A DNA stretch of 64,000 nt from Antedon mediterranea. Its lineage: Eukaryota; Echinodermata; Crinoidea; Comatulida; Antedonidae. Where the stretch lies: positions 21,369,001-21,433,000 of the forward strand of contig NC_092680.1 of NCBI RefSeq assembly GCF_964355755.1, read 5' to 3'. The notes beneath the pieces were generated by a model. It was given only the letters and a program-made list of their open reading frames with translations. It made no database searches and was not told the origin of the DNA. Positions 26,036 through 63,353 of this stretch are shown piece after piece (the stretch's first letter is position 1; the number at the start of each line of letters is the position of its first letter). The position numbers were made by a program, and so were the translations under genes.

Positions 26036-26168
26036 GTTATGTGATGTGCCCATATTTGGACATGATGATGTCATATCACTGCCATATTTGAGCATATCAC
26101 TACCATATTTGGGTAAATCAGTTTGTTTTTGTCTAGTAACTAACTAGTTTTATAGTGTAGACAGAGCT
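26036..26168 (+). mobile_element. MITE family A copy 5, left end lost
   Basis: The body from GTGATGTGCCCATATTTGGA to the right end TATAGTGTAGACAGAGCT is clear and is followed by TTA. The left inverted repeat is not recognisable. Confidence 0.75.
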
Positions 26169-27665: not shown

Positions 27666-27789
27666 TCATAATAAACAAGAATATTTCTTATAAAAAACGC
27701 TGCTTGCTTATTGTTATTGCTAAGGTAAAGTCTGGGGGTCACTTCATCAAGCCTAGATACTTCAAGTATCCTATTACAAACAAAAACTT

Positions 27790-28265: not shown

Positions 28266-28393
28266 TATTTATATACCGTTACCACTAGTCTGTATTAATT
28301 AGACTTAAGTCGATACTTAACGGTAAAAGTACGTTAGACGAAAAGCACGTTATTGGAAACCAGAATAGTTAACAAGATTGGTATTCCTCTTAC

Positions 28394-28560
28394 CTGTGCA
28401 CCACTCTTCTCTCGTGCATGTGATGCAAGGCTGACACCAACTGGCGTACATACGGCCGTGCAGACCCTTCTGCCAACCTACCCCCACGATGACGGCGAAC
28501 CACAGAGAGCAGGTCACCACCAGACGCATACTCGGTAACGAGGCAGTACAGGTTTGTAGA
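28394..28560 (-). CDS. Kinase exon 3: hinge to HR of the catalytic loop
   Basis: This exon holds 55 full codons plus AG of an Arg codon, residues 80-135. It starts STNLYCLVTEYASGGDLLSV, the hinge and helix D, and ends HHMHERRVVHR, just before the catalytic Asp. The acceptor is TTTTCTAG|TCT and the donor is CACAG|GTAAGA, phase 2. A basic, Gly-rich stretch RRHRGGR (about residues 101-107) lies between helix D and helix E and looks slightly longer than usual for AMPK-related kinases. The long open frames on the plus strand and in another minus frame at this place are shadows of this exon. Confidence 0.9.
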
Positions 28561-29104
28561 CTAGAAAACAACAAAATAACAGTTTAATGACAAAACGTAC
28601 CACAAAATATCAGGATTATTATTATTGTTCCATTTACTACTACCCCTGTATTATCATCGTCTTGGTCGTCGTCATCATCTTCTGACATCATTATCAACAA
28701 TTAAGTCACGTTGTTAATTTTGTTTATTCATTATCACCCCATGTTGGAAATAAATGATTACTAGGCCTAGATGTAAAATGCAGTTTCTCAAAAGTTTATG
28801 ATCAAGAGTAGGCCAATAGATATCATATTACAACTTATTTTGAGGGTTTCTCAATGGCTGACAAATTATAATATTAGACAATCAAAAAGACCATGTTCTA
28901 AAATGTAAAGTTTACAATTAATTAAACTATAATATGCCAAACTGGTTGTGTTATTGCGATATACCTTTAAATTGGGCCACGTTTCCCCATATTAAACCGC
29001 ATCCAGAGTTTAAAGGGGGAAGTTGGTCTGAGGGATGAAAGACATGAGCCACATGTGGGGTGGTGTACTGCCGGCCGATGTCCTCGTGACTATTTAAATA
29101 GGCC

Positions 29105-29315
29105 TACACGTTTCTATTTTACGACGACCAGCGGTATAACGGTAAGCGTAAACGGTAAGCGAAAAATATCAATATGTAGAATCTATGCTATTTCTTACGA
29201 TCATTTACACAAAACCAGGAGCGGACGGGAAGTTGAGCGTAAACCCGCTTAGGATGACGAGCACGTGGTTTTCCGCGCGCCTACCGTTACCGCTCGTCTG
29301 CTGTGTAAATTGGCC
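29105..29315. mobile_element. MITE family D copy 2
   Basis: TTTACACAAAACCAGGAGCG near 29203 pairs with CGCTCGTCTGCTGTGTAAAT at 29291-29310. A second inner pair is GCGGTATAACGGTAAGCG against CGCCTACCGTTACCGC. The exact left limit is uncertain. Confidence 0.55.
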
Positions 29316-30090: not shown

Positions 30091-32220
30091 CTATCCAGGC
30101 CAGTAATCAACAATCACAAAACACAAGACAAATATCCAGGCCAGTAATCAATAAACACAAGACACATATCCAGGCCAGTAATCAATAAACACAAGACACA
30201 TATCCAGGCCAGTAATCAACAATCACAAAACACAAGACAAATATCCAGGCCAGTAATCAATAAACACAAGACACATATCGAGGCCAGTAATCAATAAACA
30301 CAAGACACATATCCAGGCCAGTAATCAATAAACACAAGACACATATCAAGGCCAGTAATCAATAAACACAAGACACATATCCAGGCCAGTAATCAATAAA
30401 CACAAGACACATATCCAGGCCAGTAATCAATAAACACAAGACACATATCCAGGCCAGTAATCAATAAACACAAGACACATATCCAGGCCAGTAATAAATA
30501 AACACAAGACACATATCCAGGCCAGTAATCAATAAACACAAGACACATATCCAGGCCAGTAATCAATAAACACAAGACACATATCCAGGCCAGTAATCAA
30601 TAAACACAAGACACATATCCAGGCCAGTAATCAATAAATACAAGACACATATCCAGGCCAGTAATAAATAAACACAAGACACATATCCAGGCCAGTAATC
30701 AATAAACACAAGACACATATCAAGGCCAGTAATCAATAAACACAAGACACATATCCAGGCAAGTAGCCTAATCAATAAACACAAGAAACATATCGAGGCC
30801 AGTAATCAATAAACACAAGACACATATCCAGGCCAGTAATCAATAAACACAAGACACATATCCAGGCCAGTAATCAATAAACACAAGACACATATCCAGG
30901 CCAGTAATCAATAAACACAAGACACATATCCAGGCCAGTAATCAATAAATACAAGACACATATCCAGGCCAGTAATAAATAAACACAAGACACATATCCA
31001 GGCCAGTATTGAATAAACACAAGACACATATCCAGGCCAGTAATCAATAAACACAAGACACATATCCAGGCCAGTAATCAACAATCACAAAACACAAGAC
31101 ACATATCCAGGCCAGTAATCAATAAACACAAGACACATATCGAGGCCAGTAATCAATAAACACAAGACACATATCCAGGCCAGTAATCAATAAACACAAG
31201 ACAGATATCCAGGCCAGTAATCAATAAACACAAGACACATATCGAGGCCAGTAATCAATAAACACAAGACACATATCCAGGCCAGTAATAAATAAACACA
31301 AGACACATATCCAGGCCAGTATTGAATAAACACAAGACACATATCCAGGCCAGTAATCAATAAACACAAGACACATATCCAGGCCAGTAATCAACAATCA
31401 CAAGACACATATCGAGGCCAGTAATCAATAAACACAAGACACATATCGAGGCCAGTAATCAATAAACACAAGACACATATCCAGGCCAGTAATCAATAAA
31501 CACAAGACACATATCCAGGCCAGTAATCAATAAACACAAGACACATATCCAGGCCAGTAATAAATAAACACAAGACACATATCCAGGCCAGTATTGAATA
31601 AACACAAGACACATATCCAGGCCAGTAATCATTAAACACAAGACACATATCCAGGCCAGTAATCAATAAACACAAGACACATATCAAGGCCAGTAATCAA
31701 TAAACACAAGACACATATCCAGGCAAGTAGCCTAATCAATAAACACAAGAAACATATCGAGGCCAGTAATCAATAAACACAAGACACATATCCAGGCCAG
31801 TAATCAATAAACACAAGACACATATCCAGGCCAGTATTGAATAAACACAAGACACATATCCAGGCCAGTAATCAATAAACACAAGACACATATCCAGGCC
31901 AGTAATCAATAAACACAAGACACATATCCAGGCCAGTATTGAATAAACACAAGACACATATCCAGGCCAGTAATCAATAAACACAAGACACATATCCAGG
32001 CCAGTAATCAATAAACACAAGACACATATCAAGGCCAGTAATCAATAAACACAAGACACATATCCAGGCAAGTAGCCTAATCAATAAACACAAGAAACAT
32101 ATCCAGGCCAGTAATCAATAAACACAAGACACATATCCAGGCAAGTAGCCTAATCAATAAACACAAGACAGATATCCAGGCCAGTAATCAATAATTGCAA
32201 GATATCAACCAGGCAAGTAA
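30091..32220. repeat. 34-bp minisatellite, about 62 units
   Basis: The unit contains ACACAAGACACATATCCAGG and CCAGTAATCAATAA. Variants (ATCGAGG, ATCAAGG, AGTATTGAATAA, and a 4-bp longer AAGTAGCCTAATC) recur in the same order, so larger blocks were copied. The several minus-strand open frames with LDMCLVFI and WPGYVSCVY are by-products of the array. Confidence 0.97.
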
Positions 32221-33690: not shown

Positions 33691-33827
33691 GAACACTATC
33701 AAAATAGTTTGACAAAAAAAAGTGTGATGTGGCCAAATATGGTAGTGATATGCCAAAATATGGTAGTGATATGACATCATCATGTCCATTTGTTGTCACA
33801 TAAAATGTGATAGTGTAGACAGGGCTT
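33691..33827 (-). mobile_element. MITE family A copy 6
   Basis: It is in reverse orientation, with AAAATAGTTTGACAAAAAAA near the left and GTGATAGTGTAGACAGGGCT at the right, followed by TTA. Two TATGGTAGTGATATG blocks lie inside. Confidence 0.8.
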
Positions 33828-34469
33828 TAGAATAATTAGCAAAGATGTATGGGCCTACGTTAACAAATAAAATGTCAATCAAAAACCTACATTGGCTTCA
33901 AGCATTAAAGCCACATAATATCGAAATTCTTGGTTTTTGGTTGAAACTTTGTCTGAACTAATTTCTTCATGGTATCAATTTTAACGGAAAAACTTAGCGT
34001 AACGATTCTTACTAAAACCATCTCACAATAACGAAATGGAGATCGGTTTGCTTATTTCTAATAATTTTAAATAAACGATGAGGTTCATTCAATAAATAAT
34101 AACTCAACGCCTCCAATCCTTTAACAATGACACAGTCATGGTAAAATTAGGGTTGGGTTTCATCTGTCTGTTCAAGAACTACCCAGACGCCTGCCTAACC
34201 CACCGATATGGTGTCATAAATCATGCATTATAACCCTAGCACACTTCTGGTGGTGGTATTGAATATAAATTTAGTTTACCATACCAAGGACATGAATGAT
34301 TTAATATTTGAACTAACGATTGACCTAATGAGCAAAATCACGGTTAGTAAACAAACTGATTAAAGGACAAGTTAACTGTTTCGGGGGATCAATTAAAATT
34401 GATACCATGAAGTACGTATAACAAATTTGATAAACGACACACGGACAGACGACACTGATAGAAATGAAC

Positions 34470-37189: not shown

Positions 37190-37322
37190 TTGTCTATCAA
37201 ACTAGTGTGATGTGTCCAAATGTTGTAGTTATATGCCCATATATGGCAGTGATATGACATCATCATGTCCATATATGGGCACATCACAGTTTTTGTCACA
37301 TAAAGTTTGATAGTGTAGACGT
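37190..37322 (-). mobile_element. MITE family A copy 7, ends worn
   Basis: The body GACATCATCATGTCCATATA and the right arm AAGTTTGATAGTGTAGACG are clear. The left end has only TCTATCAAACTAGTGTGATG. It lies about 65 bp from a family B copy. Confidence 0.75.
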
Positions 37323-37826: not shown

Positions 37827-37955
37827 CTCAATGGTTTCATAAATGCGAATGATGTTCGGGTGTCTCAGTTGAGAGAGCACTTTAGCCTCACGGTATAGGT
37901 TTTGTCGAACGTAATCTTCTTTTACTTTCCGAAGGTCGATCACTTTGATTGCAAC
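37827..37955 (-). CDS. Kinase exon 2: ATP-binding lysine and helix C
   Basis: This exon holds 43 codons, residues 37-79, phase 0 at both ends. It opens with VAIKVIDLRKVKEDYV, where K40 is the invariant ATP-contacting lysine. YREAKVLSQLRHPNIIRIYE carries the helix-C glutamate E59 and the HPNI motif. The acceptor is TTTTTAG|GTT and the donor is GAG|GTTGGT. The frame joins to TNTK at the end of exon 1 without change, which is the usual position of a kinase intron before VAIK. The exon is richer in G+C than its flanks, and no in-frame stop interrupts it. Confidence 0.9.
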
Positions 37956-40282
37956 CTAAAAACAACAATATCCAATTTATTAATAATAATAATTACCGGT
38001 ATATAATGCCTATCATCGTTATAATAATCTACAAACATATCATTTAATTCATTAATCATTAATTTCATAAAAAATTATCGCGTCGTCATTATCATACCAG
38101 CCTCATCATACATATTCATATCACCTATACAGATATAATCATTGTCGACATTCGTCAAATCAATAATCATCATTATTTCTACTTTATTATTTATCTTGGA
38201 AATATTATTATTATTATTATTAAAAGAGGAAATAAAATATATTCATTAATTTGTATATATTATTTAAAGAGATTAACCCAGCAGATATAAACCCAAACGT
38301 CAGATTAAAAATATACCAAGAAGGTTGAACTAATTTACTTTAGCCCACCTTTAATCCCCATCACCCTCACCTGGTAGAAACAGGTGTGTCAAAGTTTAAT
38401 TAAATGTCTGTAATACGTCTGATTTAGATCAACCAGTGCCATGCTCTATTGTAAAACATTTCACACTTTCTAATCCAGCAATCTACCAACCTCTATCAGA
38501 AGTTTTAGAACCCAAAACACAATACGTCAATTATCGCATGTTTTGTGCGCAGACGATAGCAGATTAGCACACTATACATCATTCATGTTAATTGTTTTTT
38601 TAAAAGATAAATACCAGGAATTCTATTTAATTTAGGGTCGTTAAATAATAATAAATACAATCTAATTCTACGTTTAACTTAAGATTGCGTAGAATAATAT
38701 TGCACCTCTATACTAAATAGAACAGACTGGGTCCAGCAGCCTTGGTCTGCTATTGTTTATTATCTGTATATTATCGGCTGATCTCTTCAACAAGGCAAAT
38801 AAAACAAACTTGCTAATGTACAGGATTGTCCTAATGAACAATTAACCAATCTAAGTCTAATTCAAGGCGATTTAATATTTAAGAAAACAACATCGACGTC
38901 CAACATGCGGTCGCCCTCTTTTCAAAATGTGAATACTACTAAAATACTACAGTCATGGGAGATAGCTCTATCATTCAAAGAATAACATCAAAATATGTAA
39001 TGAAATTCGTGTCTCTGCACAACGAGAAACGACGTCTCAGATTTAACCCTAACCCCTTATTCGGAGACAAATATTAACTTTTTTAATATCAATACAAGGT
39101 TAAGTGAACGAAAAGAAGAGCTCAACTAAGTTGGTCCTAAGAAAATATAAAAAGCATTACATGTCAGGAAGCCAATCTGCCAGTGACTGCTTAACAAAAA
39201 TATACTAAAAATAAACTGGTATGACGTCATACGCATTTACTTCCCTGGATATGACGTAATAACAAAATCCGTTAATGACAGTTCATCGTATTTTTTTTCT
39301 AAACATTTAACTATATATACGATGTTCTTCACTGATAGCCATGTAGATTCGAATTCTTTATCCAAGGCAATCGAACAGTTAGCCCACTAGCCGTTTAGAA
39401 AATAAAACATAACAACAGTCAACAGTACACACAGAGGCCAATTATAACATAACACTTCAACAATAACATAATGGCATATGTTGCTAGCAAACACATATGC
39501 AACAAAGCTAGAGCCAAATTAAACCAAACAATAACAATTAACAAATACAATTAAATTAAAGAGGTCGGATTATCGCTAAATTTTAGCATATAAACCCACT
39601 ACAATCCTTACATTGTAGTTTTTATTTGTTGTGTTTTTAAAACTTATTTACTTACATATTACCAAGTCATGGGGCTAGAGGTTATATTAATTATACTAAA
39701 AGAGGACGGATGTTTTGCGATTGAGGCTTTGTATTGTTTGGTTAACCACTGCGTTAATATAGATCAAAATAAGGTTGGACAAAAGTTAAAAGTTGGCTTA
39801 TGTACACCAATAATTGGACCATAGGTCACAATTTTGGCTTAGCTGATCCCTTTCACTTTCTTTCAGGCCCATGGTATGGTGGCTACTTGATCCCTTTGCA
39901 GATCATTAATAAAGATAGGATTTTGGTACACGTGAAACATCAGAGCCAAAATGTGCACCATGTATGTGTAAGTTTACAGTTAAAAGATACCGGTATTATA
40001 TGATGCGGCGTCCGCGTTGAAAATATGATAATAATAAAACGGCTTTTGTACGCGCACGTCAACTTTGTGACCGTTTGTGAGACTCACGTATCGATCAAAT
40101 TTTGAACATTCCGTAAAATGAGGGAAGGCAGCGAAGTATAGTGGCATTCTTTAAGATGCCATAGTTCACTAAACAAAACCCAAACAAAACACTTACGCTG
40201 ATACTTTTATTAGCTGTTCAACAATTTAGTTATTCTTGACACAGTTATTATTTTAAACATAACTACACAGCAAAATTTGAAA

Positions 40283-41622
40283 TTCTAAGCAAGAAAAAAA
40301 AATCTTGTTTTAAGAAAAAATTCTTAAAATAAGTATTTTTTTTCTTGTCAAGATTTAAAATTACTTAAAACAAGAAATAATTTTCTAGAAAAGACAAATT
40401 TTCTTAAATTAAGTTTTGCAATATTCTTGAAAATGCTTATTACAAGAAATATTTTACTTAAAATAAGAAGTCAATATCATTCTCTTCTTATTAAGAATAG
40501 TTTTGCTTAAAACAAGATTTGAAAATACTTAATTTGAAAAGTATTTTACTTAAAATAAGAAATCTATATTATATTTATCCCTATCAAGAATAATTTTTCT
40601 TAAATCAAGATTGATGAATTATAAAAATTACTTAAAACAATCAATATTTTTCTAGGTAAGACAAAGTTTCTTAAATTAGGTTTCGCAATAGTCTTGAAAA
40701 TACTTGTTTTGAGAAATATTTTACTTAAAATAAGAAGTCAATTTCACACTACCCTTATCAAGATTATTTTTACTTGAATCAAGATTCGCAATATTCTTGA
40801 AAATGCTTATTACAAGAAATATTTTACTTAAAATAAGAAGTCAATATCATTCTCTTCTTATTAAGAATAGTTTTGCTTAAAACAAGATTTGAAAATACTT
40901 AATTTGAAAAGTATTTTACTTAAAATAAGAAATCAATATTATATTTATCCCTATCAAGAATAATTTTTCTTAAATCAAGATTGATGAATTCTAAAAATTA
41001 CTTAAAACAATAAATATTTTTCTAGGTAAGACAAAGTTTCTTAAATTAGGTTTCGCAATATTCTTAAAAATACTTATTTTGAGAAATGTTTTACTTAAAA
41101 TAAGAAGTCAATATCATACTATCTTATCAAGACTATTTTTGCTTAAATTGAGATTCGCAATATTTTTAAAAATACTTATTTTGAGAAATGTTTTACTTAA
41201 AATAAGAAGTCAATATCATACTATCTTATCAAGACTATTTTTACTTGAATCAAGATTCGCAATATTCTTAAAAATACTTATTTCGAGAAATGTTTTACTT
41301 AAAATAAGAAGTCAATATCATACTATCTTATCAAGACTATTTTTGCTTAAATTGAGATTCGCAATATTTTAAAAAATACTTATTTTGAAAAATGTTTTAC
41401 TTAAAATAAGAAGTCAATATCATACTATCCTATCAAGACTATTTTTGCTTGAATTCAGATTCGCAATATTCTGATTTTGAGAAATGTTTTACTTAAAATA
41501 AGAAGTCAATATCATACTATCTTATCAAGACTATTTTTACTTGAATCAAGATTCGCAATATTCTTTAAAATACTTATTTTGAGAAATGTTTTACTTAAAA
41601 TAAGAAGTCAATATCATACTAT
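40283..41622. repeat. Left subterminal array of the 7.4-kb element
   Basis: AT-rich tandem units, most about 105-115 bp, each contain TTTTACTTAAAATAAGAAGT and TTATCAAGACTATTTTT-like words. The 41079-41620 part is most regular. The open frame at 41079-41372 is a by-product of the period. Confidence 0.9.
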
Positions 41623-41742
41623 GGCCAACGGTTTTTTAAAGTAATCATTCAAAATCTAGAGTTTGTAAGTAAAAGACACCTTTCATCGCAATTTATATAT
41701 TAAATGCTTCAATAGGCCTAGTAAGATTAGTCTAATATAATG

Positions 41743-41809
41743 TCGAAGGAAGACGCTTTGTTGAAGATCCGAGAAATAGATGAAGAAGTGGCCAATATTT
41801 TAACAGGTT
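41743..41809 (+). CDS. Candidate first exon inside the 7.4-kb element
   Basis: ATG opens 22 codons reading MSKEDALLKIREIDEEVANI and then LT, followed by ACAG|GTTCGT. The peptide is acidic and helix-like, with better codon texture than its surroundings, but I recognise no family. Without splicing it stops two codons later. It is the best candidate for the start of a gene carried by the element. Confidence 0.3.
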
Positions 41810-42680
41810 CGTAGGCCTAATAATTATATTTTAATCTGCCAGCAGTCTAGGCCTAGCCTAGGCTCCTTCCTAGTTAGTAATACTGTAGGCCTGGAACTAG
41901 TAGGTCTAGGCTAGCCTACTATGCCTGAACTGACTAACAGGTGTATAGGTTTAGCTTAGCATTTTAGTTCAGAAATTGACAGAGGGGACAAATATTGTCG
42001 GACCTATTTCAGCTAGGTATAAGGAAGGCCTAATAATAGATAATACAATTATAATGTAACACTAACAGTTATTTTGTAATGTAGCCATGAAATATCTACG
42101 AAGGATTATACTGTATTATATACACATATTCCAATGAGAAATATAATGACATTTAAAAACACTTCTTTATATTTAATTAATTGTACACACTAAGTAATCC
42201 CCGAAGTGATCACATCGATATTGAAACTTTATGTTTTTAACTCTAAATTTAAAAAAAACATACTAAACAAGAAATATTTCTTACAAAAAACGCCGCGTAA
42301 CTTTTTGACTGAGCAGTTGTAAGAACAGTCTTCATTAATCTAATATAATAGGTCGGCCAATCAAAACGCAAGTGAACAATTGGGACTTTACTTGTGATTT
42401 ATGTCATTGGCCTGTCAGCACAGTCGTTTCTTTCTAGAATTAAACGCACAAACTTGTATTGGGAATAATGTATGTGGTTATTACTATCGCATTTAGGTAT
42501 TGATAATAATAATAATATGGCTTTTGAATATATAATTACTGTCTGTAGAATAACATTTATACATTTTCGGTTCGCGATCAAAAGTTATATGAATGGATTT
42601 GTAATAGGTATTTATAATAATAGTATATGGGTTGTATTATTGCTAAGCTATCACCAAATCGCGTTATAACATTATTTCTC

Positions 42681-43930
42681 AGGGTTTTTTGCACCATTGA
42701 TCAATACCAAACGCGTATCGGTATTATAGTTTTTAATGAATCATTACATTAATAAAAATACCCAATTAAATCAATCGCGTCAGTCCAATTCCGACTTATG
42801 TTTCGATCACATAGTTCTGTGTCTACACTGTCCCAACTAGTTTAACAAAAAAAGTGTGATGTGCCCAAATATGGTAGTGATATGCCCGAATATCGTAGTG
42901 ATATGACATCGTCATGTCTATATAATATGGGCACATCATATTTAGTTTGATAGTATAGACAAAGCTTAAGGATTATATTTATATTTATATTTATTTATAT
43001 TTTACATTTTGAACGAAAGTATTTATTTGTTGATAAGCCCAATTTTGCATTCTTATTTTACATTTTAAATGAAAGTATTTATTTGTTGATAAGCCGAATT
43101 TTCCAGTTTAATAATAATGACCCCTTCCACAGTGCTTATACCATATACATTTTACATGATATTGACCGTGGGTTCTTTACGCCTCTGATGCATTTGTTTT
43201 TATTGTACCTTTTTAATAAATTATTATATGTTTAGGCCTAATCACACCCAATTTAATGAAACGGTCAGATTCCGATTTCAATTGAACGAAAGTAGTACTG
43301 TATTTATTATTCATTGATAAGCCAAGGGTCCCATGGCGTTAGCTGATATCTTGAGCATTTGACTCTTGTGTGAACCTGTAACACAAATCATTCTTCAAAA
43401 TCTAAAGAAAGAACCTCACACGTCTTTTTTGTGAGTGATACACTATGGATATGCCCACGGAAATAATATGTGGACATTGCAAACAATTATAGGCCTACAG
43501 TAACAAACATAGAATGGCCAATAAGCATAACATTCAGACTTGCTTGTTTTCTAGTGGATTTTTATTTACTTTAGCATGTAGAATAAAACTAGTAACAGTG
43601 GCTATATTAATAATTATACTGATTATCCTTGATGTTATCGCGTCTAATAATAAAATATTTTGTTGTTGATAAGCCCAATTTTTCAGCCTTGATTTTACAT
43701 TTTGAACGAAAGTACGGTATTTATTTGTTGATAAGCCCAATTTTGCAGTCTTAATAATGACCCTTCCACAGTGCATTTTACATGATATTGACCGAGGGTT
43801 TTTACGCCTCTATAGCCACTGATCAATACCATAATTAATGTACTTTTTTAAATGAATATTGAAATGTTTCAACATACCCAATTCAAAAAAACGGTCCGTT
43901 TTCGAGTTCAATCTTTTGATTAGAGAGGTT
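42681..43930. repeat. Three diverged copies of one repeat inside the 7.4-kb element
   Basis: Copies at about 42681-42810, 43140-43290 and 43780-43930 share GATCAATACCA-like and ACCCAATT words followed by an ACGGTC..TTCCGA-like block in two of them. Between them TTTATTTGTTGATAAGCC recurs near 43023, 43079, 43310 and 43720. The copies are old and uneven. Confidence 0.6.
42812..42966 (-). mobile_element. MITE family A copy 8, nested in the 7.4-kb element
   Basis: The left end GTTCTGTGTCTACACTGTCC and the right end TTTGATAGTATAGACAAAGC are readable, with TAA after the right end. It sits inside the larger element at 40264-47668, so it inserted there after that element's interior was in place. Confidence 0.8.
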
Positions 43931-44029
43931 GGATTTTCATTTTGAATTATAACATGGCCTAGATTGACAGTCATAAAAAAGAAAGTCATTGTAAATACTT
44001 CCCTTTATGTTGACAGAGCCAAAATAAAG

Positions 44030-44365
44030 TTTTGACCATTATCGAATGATTATTTGACAGTGACTTATTATAATACCGGCCTGGTTGACAGCAAAAACGA
44101 AGTTATTATTTATTAAACAAGATTTTACAGATTTCCGTCTACATCTCAATAATACTGTATTATCAGCAAAGGCTTTCATATAGACTCTCTTCTCCCAGAC
44201 GTTTTTTGGGTCCAGCAGCTACCTATAAATTATAGTCGAGTTTCCAAATTCACAAAACTGTCAGCCTTAGATACTAAAGCTACCGCTATGAAACAGCTTA
44301 TTAATGAATGTGTCCTCCTGGGACATAGCTGGCTAGAGCCGCGGCGCGAAAAACAAACAAAAAAC
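44030..44365. repeat. Dispersed repeat E copy inside the 7.4-kb element (empty site)
   Basis: It shares with 27790-28265 the block ACCTATAAATTATAGTCGAG and, before it, CCCAG.CGTTTTTTGG. Further on both have TTAATGAATG and GGCTAGAGC. It lacks the family B MITE present in the other copy. Confidence 0.75.
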
Positions 44366-44989
44366 ATACGTACTGCATAACTAAAATTGTTATATTAAAT
44401 TTCTTTTTAAAAAACTGTGTTATTTACAATATCTTAAATTATTTGTTAGGTAATTGAAGAAGTTCGAAGGATACTAATTATTACTAGGCAAAGAGGAATG
44501 AAATACAAAAGAAAGCTTTTTAAAAAAGTGCTTAGCAAATTTTTCCAAAGAAGAGAATAATATAGTTTATTTTGGTATTTTAAAGAGAAACACCAGTCCT
44601 CCATCTGGTAAGTACAGTGTATGTTTTTGTACTTTTATCTATTCATAAATAGTTTTATAATGGACCAATGGTAGTGAGGAAAATACGTGTACATATTGTG
44701 TACGTATTTTTAACAGCTTGGTTCGACTCAAGCTAGTGTCATGCACTCCTCCCTTTGACAACTAAAATTAAATAAATGACTTATGAATATTAATTTTTGA
44801 CATATTAATGCTCTCCTGGCCAGCCCACCTTTTCCCCTTCCTTTTACATTGACCACCTACAAAACTGTAGGCTACATTATTAAAAATTTGAGCTACAGTA
44901 TATCAAGTTTATGTCCATACATTATTCCACTCATTTAAATAAATTTATATAATATAATGTTTTCAATTTGTTATTTTTGGTTAGGTTCA

Positions 44990-45070
44990 AAGATAACCCA
45001 TATGTTGTCAAATCTGTCAAACATATTTGTTGGGAAAAACTCATCAAAAAAAGTCTGCCGACCTTGAAGG
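44990..45070 (+). CDS. Candidate internal exon of the 7.4-kb element
   Basis: Between TTTGGTTAG| and AAG|GTATTT one frame is open and reads FKDNPYVVKSVKHICWEKLI and then KKSLPTLK. An upstream piece at about 44565-44612 ending ATCTG|GTAAGT joins in frame to give W-F-K-D. A further possible exon, 45635-45685, does not keep the frame, so the gene may be broken or wrongly joined. Confidence 0.25.
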
Positions 45071-46149
45071 TATTTAGTGTTTTTTAAAATTTAAAATACA
45101 AGTAACATTATGTACATTAAAAAAAAATATCTTAAAGTGTTTTTTTAAAATCAAATTTATCTTAGCTTAAAATTCGAGGTATATACTATGTTTACAATAA
45201 TTTATTAAAATCAAACAATTAAACAAAATTTACATTTAATTGTATGATTGTTATTATAAACATTGATACGGAATAAAAACATCAATCAGGATTGAGCACC
45301 GTTTTGCGTATTGTCTTCCTAAATAGTAATATTAAAAATAAATTTAGACCCTAATAATTTAACTAAAAATAATAGATACAGCCAGGCCTGTCTTTGGGAT
45401 CGGTATAAACAGGGCAAAGTTTGTGATTAAAAAGTTCAAATGCATATTCCACCCACCCTTATGTCTTATAATGTAAAATTATTCTTACCACCGTTCTAAT
45501 ATTGCGTCATGTTTTTGTGTTTACCGCCCCAGATATAGGACTCTAAAACCACACCGTACCCAATTAGTTGATGATGTTACACATATTTTAAATACAGTAA
45601 TAACTAAAACTATATTAATCTCTTTTCATTTTTAGGAACATGAATAAAGATCCAGAATCCTGGTCTTCACGCCGATCAGGTAATATGCCGGTATTGCTTT
45701 TGGACACAGAAATGGCCTACATTAAAGTTTAGCAAACAATTCTAACTACAAAGAAAGCAAAATTAGATGAGGCTCTAGTTACTCTCCTCTCCACTTTTTA
45801 CCTTCTGGATTTCGATTATCCAAAATGAAAAGAAGTAGGCCTCACTATCCTTTAACAGTTAGTGATTTGTGATGAAAACACACCTGTACACTTGACAAAG
45901 GCTGTTGAATCATCATTAGTATACATTAATAAATTTAAAGACACCTAATAGTTAAAAGCCCAGGTGCGGGAGAAGAATTTTACAAAATTTGTATTTTATT
46001 TCTATTTTAATGTTTTTAAGTTTTCTTTTGATGGCATTTTATTATTAATAAAAACAAGTTTGTTTTAAAGAAGTTGTATATATTATTGTACCTAATGTCA
46101 TGTAAATTGTAGTTCTTAATGAAAATAACAGTATTGTTAATATTATGTT

Positions 46150-47640
46150 TTATAACATTCTTGAATTTATTTGTTTAAGTAAAATATTACTTAAAATGAG
46201 TATTCATTTATCGTTCTTAAAATAAATTTTTAATGATTTATATTTTATAGAATTCTTGTTTCAAGCAATTTTTTTCCCAATATAAGTAAGAATTTACGAA
46301 TTTTAATTTGATAGAATTCTTGTTTCAAGCAATACTTTTCTTAAAATAAGTAAACATTTACTGGTTTTTATTTGATAGACTTCTTGTTTACTTATTTTAA
46401 AAAAAGTTTTGCTTGAAACAAGAATTCTACAAATAAAAATCGGAATATTCTTACTTATTTTAAGAAATATATTGCTTGAAACAAGAAAACTAAAAATATA
46501 AATCGGAATATTCTTACTTATTTTAAGAAAAATATTGCTTAAAACAAGAATTCTGAAAAATACAAACCGGAATATTCTTACTTATTTTAAGAAAAATATT
46601 GCTTGAAACAAGAATTCTACAAATAAAAATCGGAATATTCTTACTTATTTTAAGAAATATATTGCTTGAAACAAGAATTCAAAAAATACAAATCGGAATA
46701 TTCTTACTTATTTTAAGAAAAATATTGCTTGAAACAAGAATTCAAAAAATACAAATCGGAATATTCTTACTTATTTTAAGAAAAATATTGCTTGAAACAA
46801 GAATTCAAAAAATACAAATCGGAATATTCTTACTTATTTTAAGAAATATATTGCTTGAAACAAGAATATTAAAATTAAAAATCGGAATATTCTTACTTAT
46901 TTTAAGAAAAATATTGCTTAAAACAAGAATTCTAAAAAATACAAATCGGAATATTCTTACTTATTTTAAGAAAAATATTGCTTGAAACAAGAATTCTACA
47001 AATAAAAATCGGAATATTCTTACTTATTTTAAGAAATATTTTGCTTGAAACAAAAATTCAAAAAATACAAATCGGAATATTCTTACTTATTTTAAGAAAA
47101 AAATTGCTTGAAACAAGAATTCAAAAAATACAAATCGGAATATTCTTACTTATTTTAAGAACTATATTGCTTGAAACAAGAATTCAAAAAAATACAAATC
47201 GGAATATTCTTACTTATTTTAAGAAATATATTGCTTGAAACAAGAATTCTATAAAATACAAATCGGAATATTCTTACTTATTTTAAGAAATATATTGCTT
47301 GAAACAAGAATTCAAAAAAATACAAATCGGAATATTCTTACTTATTTTAAGAAAAATATTGCTTGAAACAAGAATTCTATTTAAAAAAATCGATAAATTG
47401 TTACTTATTTTAAGGCAGATACTGCTTAAAACAAGAATGAAAAAAGCAATTAAATTCTTGGTAAGAATATTGTTCTTAAAGTATTATTTCTTGGTAAGAA
47501 TAATTTTCTTGATAAGAATTTGTGTGATTCTTGTTAAGAATTTTACGATTCTTGGTAAGCCAAAAAGTATTGAAATACGGACAAGTCAAAATTTACTTGT
47601 TTCAAGAAATATTTTGCTTGAAACAAGTTTTTTTTTTCTT
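46150..47640. repeat. Right subterminal array of the 7.4-kb element
   Basis: About 15 units of roughly 63-65 bp share ATTCTTACTTATTTTAAGAA and TTGCTTGAAACAAGAATTC. Several are exactly 63 bp, so a plus-strand frame stays open for over 120 codons (46599-46985). Unit length and sequence differ from the left array, although the complement shares CTTAAAATAAG. Confidence 0.92.
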
Positions 47641-48140
47641 AAAACAAGAATCAGAATTTTGCTGTGTATAAAACATGTAAATATATAAGTCCGCTGCTTA
47701 ATTTATATATGTGATTTAATGAGGCTAGACGGCTAGTGGAGTGGCCTGGGGTGTACTCACTCAGACATAGCTTCGCCTCAGTCAATAACTTGCGATCTTT
47801 TACCAAATTGATTATTTTCATACCTATAATAATTTACAAATTATATGATAAGGGTTGATGGGTGTAATATAAATTGATGGATAAGAGCCACGAAACAGAT
47901 ATAAATTAAATGCTTTTAAAGTAAAGAGACACATAGGATCATTTATTATGTCTACTAAATCGAATCGTCAATGCGATTGTAGTTCATAGCACCATAGTAT
48001 TCCATCGAATTAGATACATTTACAGAAGTAAGAAGAAGTAAGAGAAACTAAATAGAAATATTGAGACATAGGAATAATGTTTATTATACAATGTTGATGT
48101 GTATAGTATGCTCAGGTCTACTAACATTATTTTCACAATA

Positions 48141-48345
48141 TCATCTCATGATGATAATGATGATGAATACCATAATGATGATGATGATGATTATCATGAT
48201 GATGATGATAATGATGATTATTATCATGACGATGATGATAATGATGATGATGACGATGATGATATGATGGATGGATGATGATGATGATAATGATGATGAT
48301 GATGATGATGATGGATAATGATCATGATAATGATCACGATCATAA
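48141..48345. repeat. GAT-type microsatellite
   Basis: This is a long imperfect GATGATGAT run with ATT and CATGA interruptions. It makes Met- and Ile-rich frames on both strands that are not genes. Confidence 0.93.
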
Positions 48346-49003
48346 TGTGACCAGGTTTGTGCTGATTGTGTAGACCTATGAGGTTCCTCCAAATCCAGGT
48401 CAGTTACAGTAGCTATTTTAAAAGTAAGCATTTGATATAAAAATACCAATGAGTTATTGAGTGCAAATTCGTGAACTTAAATTTCCGAAAAAGGTAACGC
48501 AGTCGACAGACCAGGTAGAGAAGTCTCACCTCAACGAGCAAAGAATTCGTGGACTGTTAAGATGAATAGGGTGGTAAACCATGCAACTACTCCACGAGGC
48601 CTTGACAGCACCATATAAGGAAGACGTTGGGTCTTCTAAGTTAGATGGATCGCAAACGGGTACGCTAATGCTTCTATAGCGTACTTCGAAGATATGCAAT
48701 TTATTTATGTTATTTTACACAGACATTTGGTTTCTGTAAAAGCGTAAACAGCTATTATTTAAACTTTTAAACGATCAAACAACCCCTTGACATATTTTCA
48801 AAGACTATAATATTTAATAAGGCAAAGCAACACTATAATCTATACCTGTATAGGCCTAGGCCTACCCAAAACATTTTAAAACATAATGCATCATCTGACT
48901 CCATCAACATTTTTGTTTCTCTACATGTATGCCTAAATATTCAACTGTATTTTTTATGATTTCAAGTTTTGACTGTCATTTTTACATTGACTATGGTACC
49001 AAC

Positions 49004-49111
49004 CTTTGTGTTGCATACGGTATCTGTAGCTAGCTCAACGACAGCAAAATTTCCCTTCCCGAGTGTCTCATTTTCAATTCTATACCGTCCTATCGATTTC
49101 AGGTGCGTCAT
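49004..49111 (-). CDS. Kinase exon 1: start codon and glycine-rich loop
   Basis: This exon holds 36 codons, residues 1-36, beginning MTHLKSIGRYRIENETLGKG. The glycine loop reads LGKGNFAVV at residues 17-25. The ATG at 49111 is chosen as start because an in-frame TAG lies about 15 codons upstream, no other Met falls between, and IGRY is where kinase domains of this group normally begin. The donor is AAG|GTTGGT, phase 0, the same unusual GTTGGT as exon 2. A 5' UTR intron upstream cannot be excluded. The exon lies about 1.3 kb outside the 7.4-kb terminal-inverted-repeat element in intron 1. Confidence 0.85.
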
Positions 49112-49275
49112 TGCTATAAACGTTTTAAATAAATAATCAAAATACAGTCTATTCTACGAAAAACGACATAACTTTTATGTTTTTATTGCCAAAGTATACT
49201 TAAGGCATCTGCTCTAAACGTAACTAAGTTCCAAATGCAATAAATACAAACATGTCACAAGCAACCAACACACAT

Positions 49276-49343
49276 GGTAACCAACACGCGTTGTTGTATA
49301 CGCACATGGTAATCAACACGCGTTGTTGTATACGCGCGCGGAT
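49276..49343. repeat. Two-copy direct repeat about 170-230 bp upstream of the kinase ATG
   Basis: Two copies of a 33-34-bp unit share the core CAACACGCGTTGTTGTATAC. The core contains the palindrome AACACGCGTT-like ACGCGT. The repeat is followed on the plus side by a CpG-rich run GTATACGCGCGCGG. The position just upstream of exon 1 makes a regulatory role possible, but that is inference only. Confidence 0.7.
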
Positions 49344-50259
49344 TTTAACTGCGTCGTGAAGATGCGTTGATCGCAAGAGGGCGTTTGTTGGTCAGTGATG
49401 GACGGACGGAAGTATCCTTCAAATGATACTGAGATTATATTAGGTGAAAAAGATTTACATAAACTTTAATATCGGTGTTTGTATTAGCAATGAATTCACA
49501 CTTAGCCAATTGTGTCGAAACAGCCAAGGTAAGAGAGTACGGCCGCGACAAATGGCACGTCCTCTTGAGTCAGAGGCATCGTGTAAAAGTAAACTTTGTT
49601 GAGATTAGGAAAACATCCAAAAGGACTGATGAACAATTGTTATGCCATCCTCGTATATTGACATTGTACAGAAATATATCATTCACTTAATGTTACGTTT
49701 CTTAGATTTACTAACCAAATTTTACTTAACGATAAACATTCATTATACACACGTACCGTGATACTTGGGACCGCATCTTAAGATTACATAATGTAAATAT
49801 GTCGGTTTCTAACGGGTCCCAAACCCGTCTAGCACGATGGGTGGCCACCCATCAGCGGTAAATATGTGATGGTGATTTCTGTCTAGGTTCATGTGATTAA
49901 TACAACATCAAAATACCACATGCGACAATGAACTTCCGACTTGGTTATTTTGCCTAAATCATTTTGACATTATATTAACCCGTAAAAACGGATTAGTTCG
50001 AAACGGAAAAAAAAACATAATTGTGGTACACGGACTGGCAAGAATGTTAGCGCCACCACCTCTGAGGATAATAGTTGGACCCGGTGTTGCGAAGGTTAAA
50101 TTTATTTAGGCGCATGAACTGTTAATAGTTAATGTACTTATCATGCACAAGAAGATGATCAAGCAATAATAACATTTAAAGGGCTACACATTATCGAATG
50201 ATACAGATTATGACAACGATGTCAGCGAGCAAAATAAGGTTGTGTGACGATGATGATAC

Positions 50260-50383
50260 ATCTTGGTTTCCACCTGGACGCAACGCAATCGAATCAAGTT
50301 GACCAATTACAAGCGCGCGATAGTTCGGATGTTCCACGCGCGCGTCATCCTTTTTGCGTCCAATCCAAGTGAAAACCAAAGCT
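50260..50383. mobile_element. MITE family B copy, short
   Basis: The left end ATCTTGGTTTCCACCTGGAC and the right end CCAAGTGAAAACCAAAGCT, followed by TAA, are clear. At about 124 bp it is shorter than its relatives. The short open frames on both strands here come from its inverted repeat. Confidence 0.75.
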
Positions 50384-51264
50384 TAAAGGAGGATTGTGGA
50401 TCATCGTCGAAAATTAATATACTAATAATGCCCGAACATAAATACAATTTTTATTTAAATATCTATTCTGAAGTCGGTCTAAAAGCCACATTAGAGAGAA
50501 ACCGCTATTCATGTCTGCATTCCTCTTTCTAACCCGGGTGGTGGTGGTGATCTGGGGAGCATAATACACCCAAAATACAAACCAGGATTAGAGCATAAAC
50601 TAGACTGACTGTTACTTTAATGAACCGACAGCCTAGATTATTGATAGTTTACAGAAACATAATAATATTCACATTAAATTCTCGTTAGGAACTTTTCCGG
50701 AAACATGCCGTCCGTGGTATAAATTCCTCAATCAATCTTTAACTTGATTGAAAGAGGCCTTTTACATTTTTAGGCGCAGCCTAGGTATACGGTTGCTAAA
50801 GATCATTGAGTGCGCACGCGTATAAAAAGTGAGTAGAAATGCGCAAAGCAAGTCTACAATGTAATTTTGCGAGTAGAGCTGGCAGTAGTATTCAGAATTA
50901 TAGCATTAAATCAGGAAATTGTAGGTAGAATAAACACTGAATATTACAATGGTGACCTGGCTAGCACACGGTTTAAGTATACCAACAACACGAGTCATAA
51001 AAACAATATAAAAGATGTTTTTACTTAGCGCCAATAGTGTATTGACACTATCCGTCTAAAAAGGTCAACAAACGGGCAAGCCATACCTGACCTACACTCT
51101 CTCATTGATGAATCACCAAATCAGGCTGCTGTAGATTACAAACAACAAAACACACCATCATCTACACACAAGCATTTTGTGTTCATGTTTTCTAAATGTG
51201 GAAAATGTATTAGCACTGACCTAGTTTTCAATACGACGTTGTAATGACGTCATAACGTGGTTAA

Positions 51265-51330
51265 TATGACGCAACATACGTACGCGCAACGCCATTAATT
51301 TGACCAATCACAAGCAACAATTCGGATAAG
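51265..51330. mobile_element. MITE family B fragment
   Basis: One arm only: CGTACGCGCAACGCCATTAA then TTGACCAATCACAAGCAACA. Neither end is seen. Confidence 0.55.
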
Positions 51331-52574
51331 GGACGAACACTTTTCTTTATGTAAACTTTAAACTGGTATAAATTAAACGGTAACCAATTGTCATTGATCA
51401 TCAAACCCTAATGTTTTTTTTTATTATTACATTTTATAAATTCTCTGAATGGGACACGAAAGAGAAAAAAAAATTCTTTAAATGGGATTTAGGTCATCAA
51501 ATGACGACTTTCCAGTGCACTGAACCGTAACTAACATTCCTTCAGCATGCCCCAATAAACTGGGTTTTTAATGTGTGAATGTGAAGGTGTACATGCCAAA
51601 CCGTAATAACAACATGAACCCTGCCCAACATGATTTAATTTATATCGATTTGGAATACCAATAACATTAAACAAATGTGATAGTATCATGCAGGAATTAG
51701 TAATTAAATCCGAATTCCTTGTATGTATCCCTTTAAAATGTTTCAATGTACTATTCGGGGCGCGCATACCATGGTAACAAAATCACGTCGGAAATATTCA
51801 ACTAAAGGTAATCTTAGCGCCGTTATTTGGTAAACAAATTTGTCAATAACTTTGTCGGTGGATTTTCTTTCAACACTTTCCGGAAATAGCAATTTACCGG
51901 GAGGTATATTGGCTACAAAAATAAAATGAACAGTATTGGATGAGTTCACGTCAAGTGCATTTTACATTATGCTACGGTCCGACGACACAGAACCGTCATA
52001 GAGATGACGCGTTAGCGTCATGTAGCGACGAATACAACGCGTTGTAACGTATTGGTCTGCGCAACGTTTTCACTTTATAATTAAAGCAAGTACCCTGTAG
52101 CTTATTTTTAAAAACTAAACAATCTTAGCTACCTAAAGATGAGACTATTTTATTTTGAATTAGGCCTAGGCCTACATATTTGTAACAAGTAGGCGGAATC
52201 TTCACAAAGGTGAAAATTACACACAATACAAGGACATGTCGGTACAATGAGCGACATGGTTAAAATGTCACTATGAAAGGAATGCGGATACTTTGTGACA
52301 GTTTCTAAACGTATTAGTTTTAATTTTAGCTCGAGCTTGTCGACATTGTGACGACCTCAACCTTCATTTTGATTCACACAAATGATGTCATTTTTAAATA
52401 CGATTACTATTTAATTATCGTATTAATAGAAACAGTCAACTCATGGCTAGTTTAGGCCTATTAGCTAGAAGGAATAAATCAGAACACTCCAAACCAAACG
52501 ACAGAAAGAGTAGTACAGTAGGCCTATTATACTACTATAGTAGTAGTAGGCTGGGTGAGCGCTTAACTAAACTG

Positions 52575-52706
52575 GAGGACGGAACGACGCGAACGCGCAA
52601 TGCAAACAAATGGATCAATGAAAAGCGTCAGTTCGGATCTGTCCCTGTGATTGGTCAAACCACTTGCGTTACGTGTACGTATTTGCGTCCTTGAAAACCA
52701 AGTCTA
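52575..52706. mobile_element. MITE family B copy, left end worn
   Basis: GACGGAACGACGCGAACGCG at left and GTGATTGGTCAAACCACTTG then CGTCCTTGAAAACCAAG at right match the family. An open frame at 52443-52694 runs through it and is not a gene. Confidence 0.65.
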
Positions 52707-53321
52707 CTTTATACATTTAATTTAATTCACCCTAACGAAAGAATCCATAAATCTGTATGTGAATGCGAGATTGAACCTTTAATGTTCGTCCTATATATTT
52801 TGGAAGGAGAGATCGTTTTTTTTTCAATGGTTTATGTATCAAGGTGTAGGCTAAGTACATTAATTCATCATGTGTACAGAGTGACTCAAAACAACATAAA
52901 ACATGACTCACGTTTTTCTTCAATCAAACAATAATTTATTATCAATATAGACCTATATTTATTTATATTAATGATGTGGTTTCAGATATGAAATGCGTAC
53001 CTAGATAATTTGATCCTCTGTGTTTCTCGAGGCATAATTAACAGTGTAGCTCGGCTATACAAACGCTTGAGAACAAGATAGATAGATTCGTGTCTCTAGA
53101 CTTTTGGTTTGTATTAATAAGCCTATAAACCCAGATGAATAGTTGACTACTGTATGAATAGGCTAACACTGTTTCGTGTCACAGGAATTTAACGAGAGCA
53201 AGTTCCTAAAGTAGACCTAATAGTCAAAAGCACTCAGTTTATAAGAACAGAGTGCAAACGTTATATATTATAGGTTAATGCTAGCACCGTGTCTTTCGGA
53301 TCAGCAACAACATCTTTCTAA

Positions 53322-53462
53322 AGCTTGGTTCCCACGCAACGACGAAATCTCACCCTAAGTATAACTTAACTAATCACGACGCGGTGGATCCTCTGTCGGT
53401 TGTTGTAATTGGTCAACCCACTTGCGTTGCGCACCAGTTCTTGTGTTCCGCGAAATAAAGCC
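53322..53462. mobile_element. MITE family B copy
   Basis: It starts AGCTTGGTTCCCACGCAACG after TAA and has GTAATTGGTCAACCCACTTG in the right arm. The right end is worn (AAATAAAGCC) but is followed by TAA. Confidence 0.75.
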
Positions 53463-53717
53463 TAATACGTATGGTGTAGCATAGACAGGTAGTCTGTATT
53501 ATCTTATAATATATACAAATGCAACGTCACACCTATACCATCAATATGAATCATTTTGTATCAGAACGTCGTAACCCAGAATATTGTTAACTTACTAATT
53601 ATAAAGCATGAAGGATTAAAATATTAAGTCTTGGCATGACTTTGCACGACGATCAAGAGAATACGGTAGTAATCAACAAAATAAATGAATAGAAGAGAGC
53701 AACTAGGCATAGCATAA

Positions 53718-53878
53718 AGACTGGTTTACACTTGAACGCAACTCAAGGACGTACGCGCACCGCAAGTGTATGATCTATCACGCGGTGCGCGATACATTAA
53801 TTGTCCGAACTGTCGCTTGTGATTGGTCAACTCATTTGCGTTGGGCCTACACGTCATTGCGTTGCGTCCAAGTGGTCA
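53718..53878. mobile_element. MITE family B copy with worn tips
   Basis: Left arm: ACTGGTTTACACTTGAACGC. Right arm: CTGTCGCTTGTGATTGGTCA and TTGCGTTGCGTCCAAGTGGT. An extra CpG-rich palindromic patch, CACGCGGTGCGCG, lies at the centre. Confidence 0.75.
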
Positions 53879-53984
53879 GTTGTTTAAATGGTCATGTGCA
53901 ATCATAGTATTAGTAAAGTAAGAAGTACTGGGATGGTAAATCAGACTCGTTTGTGCGGGAGGAGTGGCGTACCCTCCACAAACA

Positions 53985-54360
53985 TATCAATCAATCAATT
54001 TATTTGGAAATTGCACCTTTACATCGGTGGCACACACAGGAAGTGGTGCATCCATATTGAACACAATTAACATAAAATGACGGATACGGATACTTAAGCT
54101 AATTTGAATTAAAATTAGTACTCTATACTGTAGCAATATTTGTCTGACATGAGTTGATACATTTTAGTTAAATATATTTATATATATATAGGCCTACATA
54201 AAGAGGAAGTAGTAACAAAAATATTTGTTGATGAGGATATTAAAATTATCATGATAGTTAATATTGAAATGGTTTCATATACAGTATAGTAATAACAATT
54301 ATACATAGTGATACAAAATAATATATAAAAAATACATTCACATAAAATCATAAGTTAATA

Positions 54361-54397
<37 letters not shown>

Positions 54398-54760
54398 ACT
54401 ATACTACTATACTTAACTTAAAAAGCCAAAAGAAAACGTTGGTAAGTAAATATATTTAATGTAAGGTATAGCCTGTTAATCATTACTGTATTTATAGTTC
54501 TACATTAGTAGTACCAGACTACTACAGTTTAGTGATAACAATAATTATTAATACATGATACAAAATAATATATATATAAATACATTCACATTCACAAAAA
54601 AAACTTAAGTATACTATACTTAACTAAAAAAATTCTTTATTTCGTTACTCTATTTACATACACACTTAGTGGAGTCTGGCCCAAACGCTAAATAAATGGA
54701 GATGGGCACCACCACGGCATTAGCTTATGTTTTGACTTTACCTTTACCTTACCCTTACCT
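53985..54760 (-). mobile_element. Possible retroelement 3' region with internal duplication
   Basis: Read on the minus strand, the segment ends CCAAATAAATTGATTGATTG, a short repeated tail of the retroelement kind. Inside, about 100 bp is duplicated (54283-54425 and 54525-54635), each copy holding GATACAAAATAATATAT and TATACTTAACT. One copy carries an uninterrupted run of 31 A at 54362-54392. No coding sequence is visible. Confidence 0.35.
54362..54392. repeat. Run of 31 A
   Basis: An uninterrupted poly-A run lies inside one copy of a local duplication. Length is likely to be unstable or subject to sequencing error. Confidence 0.9.
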
Positions 54761-55231
54761 ATTAGTAATGAGATTGGCATGTTTAACTATAATATCACTG
54801 TTTTAAAAACATCGATAATTTATCTAATACAATGATGATTGTAAACAGAATTGTAATTAATTACTTGTTGGTTTGATTGACAAGCGGTAGTGTACAGACA
54901 TATTGCACCAATATTTATACTTGTGGAAACAGCGCCTCAAAATACAGTCAAATACTGAATCCATACAACACCGACACTTGTTTACAAACGCTATCACTAA
55001 ATACACACATAAATAACTCAACATTGTACAACCAACCAGTCTGATTGTCTTTACTATGGTGGTATGTCACGAATACAAGATACAATTGAAGAGGTGGTTT
55101 GTTTCCTTATAAAATACATACGTCAATCAATCAAAATGATTGGCAACTGTCCTCTGATTGACATACGACACATATACATATTTAATAACTCTGGGCATCT
55201 ACACAAATGAGGTCATTATCTTCGTTGTTTC

Positions 55232-55405
55232 TAAAGCCTTGTCTACACTATCAAACTTTATGTGACAAAAAGATGTGTCCATAATGGTAGTGATATTGTC
55301 AAATGTGGTAGTGATATTGTCAAATATGGTAGTGATATGACATCATCATGTCCATATTTGGACAGATAACATTTTTTTAACACATACAGTTTGATAGTGT
55401 ATACA
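55232..55405 (-). mobile_element. MITE family A copy 9, with an extra internal block
   Basis: It starts AAGCCTTGTCTACACTATCA and has three rather than two GGTAGTGATAT blocks, each followed by a short TGTCAAAT-like spacer. The right arm is AGTTTGATAGTGTATAC. The internal block appears to have been amplified in this copy. Confidence 0.78.
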
Positions 55406-63277: not shown

Positions 63278-63353
63278 CTAAATTCTTCAAAGTCATGTCC
63301 TATTATTGACCTCTTTCTAGGGTCAATATTAAACCTTATTTTTTAGGACAATA

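What the first reader, a model, noticed from the sequence alone, without database searches (positions are those of the whole stretch)
40264..47668. 7.4-kb inverted-repeat element with two unlike subterminal arrays inside a kinase intron
Seen: perfect 14-bp ends, a left array of about 110-bp units and a right array of about 64-bp units, both carrying CTTAAAATAAG-type palindromes. The two arms are related by complement but have different periods, so each side has been amplified independently. Such arms could be multiple transposase binding sites. This is the best candidate in the window for an undescribed system.
Basis: partly seen in the sequence, partly recalled or inferred. Interest (0 to 1): 0.75.

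Follow-up and report, generated by a model that had tools for sequence, protein, structure and literature searches.

The report
Transposon with repeated protein-docking ends
This looks like a non-coding jumping-DNA element sitting in an intron of a kinase gene, with matching short tips and a long row of small palindromes at each end that probably serve as docking sites for the enzyme that moves it; the general design is already known.

Summary
A 7,405-bp element (40264-47668) has perfect 14-bp inverted ends and a long AT-rich array at each end (left about 102-bp units, right 63-bp units). Both arrays carry one 32-bp module: two 11-bp near-palindromes with starts 21 bp apart. Exact palindromes: 60 inside, 1 in the rest of the window, 0 in the core. 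The element lies in an 11-kb intron of a SIK/MARK-like kinase gene. The arrays are related equally well in direct and inverted orientation; only the outermost ~76 bp are clearly inverted. The core shows no Pfam domain. Best reading: a non-autonomous cut-and-paste transposon whose arrays are multiple binding sites for a transposase or helper protein, working like CACTA or Galileo ends. The superfamily stays open: the target duplication is ambiguous (TA, or AAACAT with slack), and neither beats chance clearly. The decisive test, a second copy or an empty site, was not made: the genome search was unreachable in 8 of 8 tries.

The parts
40264..47668 (.). whole element (7,405 bp by the 14-bp ends; 40266-47666 if TA is the target duplication)
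40264..40277 (+). left terminal inverted repeat TACACAGCAAAATT
47655..47668 (-). right terminal inverted repeat TACACAGCAAAATT
40291..40366 (+). outer left stretch that matches the outer right stretch in inverted orientation (77% over 78 columns)
47565..47640 (-). outer right stretch, partner of 40291-40366
40304..41622 (+). left subterminal array: about 102-bp units, 370-bp higher-order unit; 40 palindrome sites (up to 2 mismatches) in 40291-41622; 11 of 39 neighbour spacings are 21 bp; most units carry a third palindrome
46388..47438 (-). right subterminal array: 63-bp units x 16.6; alternating 21- and 42/43-bp palindrome spacings
46237..46389 (+). inner part of the right array in opposite orientation (head-to-head junction near 46389)
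47596..47648 (-). three outermost right palindromes, 21 bp apart
41623..46159 (.). core: no exact palindrome, no Pfam or Rfam match; longest stop-to-stop frame 93 aa
42817..42976 (.). short interspersed repeat nested in the core, with related copies at other places in the window
43016..43282 (+). direct duplicate within the core, partner 43652-43912 (73%)
42259..44352 (+). four blocks of the core match a collinear remnant at 27667-28252
45636..45679 (+). exon-like stretch (speculative): the only plus-strand stretch in the core that passed the script's acceptor and donor filter; further exon-like stretches (41740-41806, 44985-45069) were picked by eye; no homologue found

Best explanation
A non-autonomous (or degenerate) cut-and-paste DNA transposon. 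A transposase made elsewhere cuts at the short inverted ends (CACAGCAAAATT, possibly with TA as target duplication). Each arm carries dozens of 11-bp near-palindromic sites, many of them arranged as 32-bp modules of two sites two helical turns apart. These are most likely bound by dimers of the transposase's DNA-binding domain, or of an accessory protein like TNPA of En/Spm, forming a multimer on each arm that selects and pairs the ends. The arrays then lengthened separately on each side by unequal exchange or repair slippage, keeping the module while the linkers diverged. Shown: ends, arrays, module, spacing, intron location, lack of a recognised coding domain. Inferred: protein binding, synapsis, mobility, and the way the arrays grew.
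For: Perfect 14-bp inverted ends at the outer edges of both arrays. Palindromes confined to the arrays: 60 exact inside, 1 outside, 0 in the core. Both arrays share the 21-bp pair: 11 of 39 neighbour spacings left, 20 of 43 right. Modules of the two arrays agree at 79% over all left-right pairs, their 40-bp flanks at 35% and 37% (ungapped and anchored on the palindromes, so biased towards the module). Unit consensuses align better than all 1,000 shuffles in either orientation. Within the right array, palindrome columns vary less (mean entropy 0.055) than spacer (0.254) and linker columns (0.279) over 16 units. Right-array spacings of 21 and 42 bp put the sites on one helix face (resultant 0.81 at 10.5 bp). 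Repeated binding sites in transposon ends have precedents (PMC2613891, PMC3688188, passages).
Against: Only one copy has been seen; no empty site and no second copy could be tested. The target duplication is weak: TA alone (chance about 0.08), or AAACAT with 2-3 bp of slack (0.063 in AT-rich flanks). The 14-bp inverted match was reached at least once in 5,000 shuffles of the AT-rich flanks. No transposase domain was found. The helical phasing does not hold in the left array (resultant 0.38; periods 9, 9.5, 10 and 13 score higher). The 32-column module is not the most conserved stretch of the right unit (rank 15 of 64). Uniformity within one array can come from recent homogenisation, and the 21-bp spacing shared by two related arrays may be inherited, not selected.
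Confidence: 0.74

Rival explanations
1. It is specifically a CACTA (En/Spm-type) element of an animal: ends beginning CAC, 2-3 bp target duplication, subterminal repeats bound by a TNPA-like protein, and a degenerate multi-exon gene in the core.
For: Ends begin CAC and TA is a possible 2-bp duplication. Tgmt* of soybean has a similar layout: 13-bp ends, 24 subterminal repeats in 732 bp on one side and 4 in 159 bp on the other, in direct and inverted pairs forming palindromes (PMC2613891 section 7). A CACTA-type element of Hydra with a 2-bp duplication is described (PMC4298943 passages). Exon-like stretches lie in the core (and by eye).
Against: Ends are CACAG, not CACTA. No transposase domain. 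The duplication is ambiguous. The joined exon-like peptide has no homologue.
Confidence: 0.3
2. It is a foldback-like element of the P (Galileo) or Mutator superfamily with 6-9 bp target duplications, its long repeated arms being tandemly grown inverted repeats.
For: Outermost ~76 bp of the two ends are inverted copies at 77%. AAACAT (6 bp), or 7 of 8 bases of TTAAACAT/TAAAACAT, flank the ends with 0-3 bp of slack. Galileo long inverted repeats hold three THAP-domain binding sites, two of them in tandem repeats (PMC3688188 passages). Muta1 has 9 copies of a 12-bp subterminal repeat (PMC5225508 passages).
Against: The arms are not inverted copies of each other beyond the outermost part: periods differ and direct matches are as good or longer. 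The 6-bp match is not clearly beyond chance (0.017 in all window positions, 0.063 in AT-rich flanks) and does not abut the perfect ends. No transposase domain.
Confidence: 0.17
3. Not a transposon: two AT-rich satellite-like arrays grown from a shared palindrome on either side of an intron segment, with inverted ends by chance or by an old inversion. The window holds several other tandem arrays.
For: The window is rich in tandem arrays. No second copy or empty site is available. Right array is partly inverted. Shuffles of the AT-rich flanks reached a 14-bp match at least once in 5,000.
Against: 14-bp perfect inverted match just outside both arrays (0 of 1,959 window pairs reach it). 60 of the 61 exact palindromes of the window lie between the ends.
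Confidence: 0.09

Closest known systems
CACTA (En/Spm) transposons, e.g. soybean Tgmt* (PMC2613891; passages and section 7 read)
   Same: Short inverted ends beginning CAC; many subterminal copies of a short motif in direct and inverted pairs that form palindromes; different layout on the two sides; insertion in an intron.
   Different: CACAG instead of CACTA; no transposase domain here; 11-bp palindromes, many at 21-bp pitch, embedded in long tandem units, in place of a 17-bp motif; target duplication uncertain.
Galileo (P superfamily) of Drosophila (PMC3688188; passages read)
   Same: Long internally repetitive ends with several binding sites for the transposase's DNA-binding domain; there one was footprinted and two more bound in gel shifts.
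   Different: Galileo arms are long inverted repeats (0.5-1.2 kb); here only the outermost part is inverted. No THAP domain found here; binding not tested.
Foldback-type elements: Tetris (PMC4079207, passages) and Muta1, a Mutator-like element (PMC5225508, passages)
   Same: Tandem repeats near the ends; Tetris copies lack conserved reading frames.
   Different: 8-10 bp duplications and long matching inverted repeats, neither shown here.
Zebrafish Pdre2 (P-like; PMC10983969, passages)
   Same: 13-bp ends plus separate subterminal inverted sites.
   Different: One 12-bp subterminal pair, not arrays; 8-bp duplication.

Membership tests
Cut-and-paste DNA transposon (any superfamily) | Terminal inverted repeats | tested here: met
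   14 of 14 bp
Cut-and-paste DNA transposon (any superfamily) | Target-site duplication abutting the ends | tested here: inconclusive
   TA (2 bp) abuts; AAACAT (6 bp) with slack; neither clearly beyond chance
Cut-and-paste DNA transposon (any superfamily) | Further copies at unrelated sites, empty sites in relatives | not testable with these tools
   The genome search unreachable in 8 of 8 tries
CACTA (En/Spm) | Ends beginning CACTA | tested here: not met
   Ends are CACAGC
CACTA (En/Spm) | 2-3 bp target duplication | tested here: inconclusive
   TA possible
CACTA (En/Spm) | Reiterated subterminal motif in direct and inverted orientation | tested here: met
CACTA (En/Spm) | Tnp2-type transposase | tested here: not met
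   0 Pfam families at E up to 1 in 6 of 6 frames of the core, stops read as X; a non-autonomous copy would lack it
Galileo (P superfamily) | Long inverted repeats at both ends | tested here: not met
   Only the outermost ~76 bp are clearly inverted copies
Galileo (P superfamily) | THAP-type transposase | tested here: not met
   a non-autonomous copy would lack it
Mutator / foldback | 8-9 bp target duplication | tested here: inconclusive
   Best 8-bp pair has 1 mismatch and leaves 3 unexplained bases on one side
Tc1/mariner | TA target duplication | tested here: inconclusive
   TA at both edges, chance about 0.08
Tc1/mariner | DDE transposase of that family | tested here: not met
   a non-autonomous copy would lack it

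The most novel reading that the evidence does not exclude
The arms are the recognition platform of an undescribed transposase lineage that reads pairs of 11-bp palindromes two helical turns apart, and each arm tunes its own strength by growing its array separately. That would make array length a direct, evolving dial for competition between elements for the same transposase.
Probability: 0.13. Interest if true: 0.6.

Novelty: new member of a known kind. Interest (0 to 1): 0.36.

Why it matters
If mobile, it is a natural case in which the site module is kept while the repeat period and linkers differ between the two ends. That would let one test whether repeated subterminal sites raise transposition and whether the two-turn spacing matters. 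As it stands it is one well-formed but unassigned element.

Tried and rejected
Kinase exons: strict motif patterns gave nothing; looser patterns, Pfam on frames and a glycine-loop pattern then found exons. Pfam found none in the minus strand of 47700-62696 (3 of 3 frames) or 62600-64000 (3 of 3 frames), so the glycine-loop exon rests on the pattern, the splice sites and the match of the joined peptide. The idea that 27341-29315 is a second transposon with TACACAG ends was dropped on reading: the stretch holds a kinase exon (28393-28569), and by eye the ends belong to two short repeats (about 27345-27664 and 29117-29307). The 27667-28252 remnant matches the core in four collinear blocks but has neither arrays nor ends by reading. 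Core coding: no accepted Pfam match (core hits with E of 0.019 or weaker, all below cut-off, dismissed), no Rfam match, no homologue of the joined exon-like peptide; hits to concatenated RecA constructs (E down to 8e-07 for the whole chain, no stretch passing on its own) were dismissed as artefacts. Hairpins: of 6 modules folded as single-stranded DNA, z was -0.20, -2.96, -1.07, -2.00, -1.47 and +0.45, so hairpins are not a consistent feature. Paper searches: end sequence (3 papers, unrelated by title, not opened); arrays and families. Plasmids: no match for the left flank.
Full report
What is there. Between 40264 and 47668 lies a stretch with perfect 14-bp inverted ends, TACACAGCAAAATT. A 12-base search allowing 2 mismatches gave 7 matches in the window, against 11.7 expected by chance; the only exact ones are the two ends. 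Comparing the 100 bp outside each outermost palindrome, the longest inverted match is the 14-bp end. Of 2,000 random pairs from the rest of the window 41 were dropped as too close; of the remaining 1,959, none reached 14 and 2 reached 12. Of 5,000 shuffles of the element's own AT-rich flanks, 10 reached 12 and the largest was 14, so at least one equalled the observation.

The arrays. Tandem Repeats Finder gives a left array with about 102-bp units and a 370-bp higher-order unit (other rows of 92, 103, 175 and 267 bp overlap), and a right array of 63-bp units, 16.6 copies. Both are rich in 11-bp near-palindromes of the type CTTRAAWYAAG. Exact sites: 60 inside the element, 1 in the rest of the window, 0 in the core. 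With up to one mismatch, 78 positions inside and 21 in 56,595 bp outside.

The module. A piece shared by both arrays is a pair of such palindromes with starts 21 bp apart, a 32-bp module. Among neighbouring sites (up to 2 mismatches), 11 of 39 spacings are 21 bp on the left and 20 of 43 on the right; a further 16 of 43 on the right are 42 or 43 bp. Most left units carry a third palindrome, at 48-50 bp. On the right the spacings put the sites on one face of the helix (resultant 0.81 at 10.5 bp; values from 10.25 to 11 are similar). On the left they do not (0.38; periods 9, 9.5, 10 and 13 score higher). Over all pairs of 11 left and 17 right modules, the module agrees at 79% and the 40-bp flanks at 35% and 37%; the consensus figures are 78% against 25% and 30%, where undecided positions count as mismatches. 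That comparison is ungapped and anchored on the palindromes, so it favours the module.

Orientation. Unit consensuses align with score 45 in direct and 46 in inverted orientation; the best of 1,000 dinucleotide shuffles of the right unit were 39 and 37. Array against array, BLAST gave 148 direct matches (best 55.4 bits, longest 344 columns) and 177 inverted ones (best 55.4 bits, longest 177 columns). The arrays are therefore related, but the module is close to its own reverse complement and the orientation cannot be read from it. Only the outermost stretch is clearly inverted (40291-40366 with 47640-47565, 77% over 78 columns). The inner 150 bp of the right array run opposite to the rest.

Constraint. 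Over 16 right-array units, palindrome columns vary less (mean entropy 0.055) than spacer (0.254) and linker columns (0.279), but the 32-column module ranks only 15th of 64 circular windows, because part of the linker is just as uniform. Constraint on the palindromes is suggested, not proven, since tandem arrays also homogenise. Single-stranded hairpins are not a consistent property: z from +0.45 to -2.96 over 6 modules.

The core. The 4.5 kb between the arrays has no Pfam match at E up to 1 in six frames with stops as X and no Rfam match (39500-48500); the longest stop-to-stop frame in it is 93 aa. A few exon-like stretches can be found; only one on the plus strand passed the script's two-site filter (45636-45679), the others I picked by eye, and a peptide joined from some of them has no homologue. 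The core holds a short interspersed repeat present elsewhere in the window (42817-42976), an internal duplicate, and four blocks (79-89% identical) that match a collinear remnant at 27667-28252. So this copy carries no recognised transposase.

Location. Pfam finds kinase exon pieces on the minus strand at 305-439 (E 7e-10, above cut-off), about 28393-28569 (E 3e-7) and about 37827-37958 (E 1e-4), the last two just or well below the curated cut-off. A glycine-loop exon, seen by pattern and not by Pfam, ends at 49004, and the next exon begins at 37955 after an AG acceptor (the intron length of 11,044 printed starts 4 bases off; 37956-49003 is 11,048). The joined 73-residue peptide matches SIK3 best (E 2e-14) and MARK kinases next, over its whole length (60 of 224 matches shown). 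The element therefore lies in an 11-kb intron.

Target duplication. TA abuts both CACAG ends (chance about 0.08 from composition). AAACAT, 6 bp, matches if 2-3 bp are left over next to the ends, and shorter or imperfect matches exist at other offsets (AACAT, ATAA, 7 of 8 bases of TTAAACAT). An exact match of 6 bp or more within 3 bp of given edges occurs in 1.7% of 5,000 random window pairs and in 6.3% of 3,000 pairs with AT-rich flanks like these. Neither settles the superfamily.

Reading. Short inverted ends plus many short sites in each arm is the anatomy of elements whose transposase or helper protein binds many subterminal sites. In CACTA elements TNPA recognises subterminal repeats needed for excision, and Tgmt* has 24 repeats in 732 bp on one side and 4 in 159 bp on the other, paired into palindromes (PMC2613891, passages and section 7 read). 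[quoted passage not shown]). Muta1 and Tetris give further parallels (PMC5225508, PMC4079207, passages). I therefore take it as a non-autonomous member of this known kind, with the superfamily open.

Limits. Only one copy was seen. The genome search did not complete, so mobility, copy number, an autonomous partner and an empty site are all untested. No claim is made that the family is unpublished: the paper searches cover only the held open-licence papers, and no library of repeat families was searched.

Noticed in passing
window 27667-28252: Remnant collinear with four blocks of the element core (79-89% per block), interrupted by what looks by eye like a short inverted-repeat insertion near 28010-28190; neither arrays nor ends seen.
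   Followed up: partly
window 27345-27664: By eye, a short repeat with TTTACACAG/TTTACACAC-type ends that holds five copies of a 50-bp tandem unit.
   Followed up: partly
window 29117-29307: By eye, an inverted-repeat element of about 190 bp ending CTCGTCTGCTGTGTAAATTGG; its ends resemble those of 27345-27664.
   Followed up: no
window 42817-42976; copies at 2346-2471, 4432-4508, 5071-5222, 7482-7578, 26039-26166, 33693-33836, 37194-37320, about 55240-55357: Dispersed short repeat (GTGATRTGCCCAAATAT type), one copy nested in the element.
   Followed up: partly
window 30112-32194, 58379-59463, 61750-62927, 9226-10005: Long tandem arrays of 34-, 70-, 35- and 89-bp units, with no match to the element in the search.
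   Followed up: no
window 28393-28569, minus strand: Kinase exon whose last codons read VVAQ by eye, where an HRD motif would be expected next; the HRD exon was not located.
   Followed up: no
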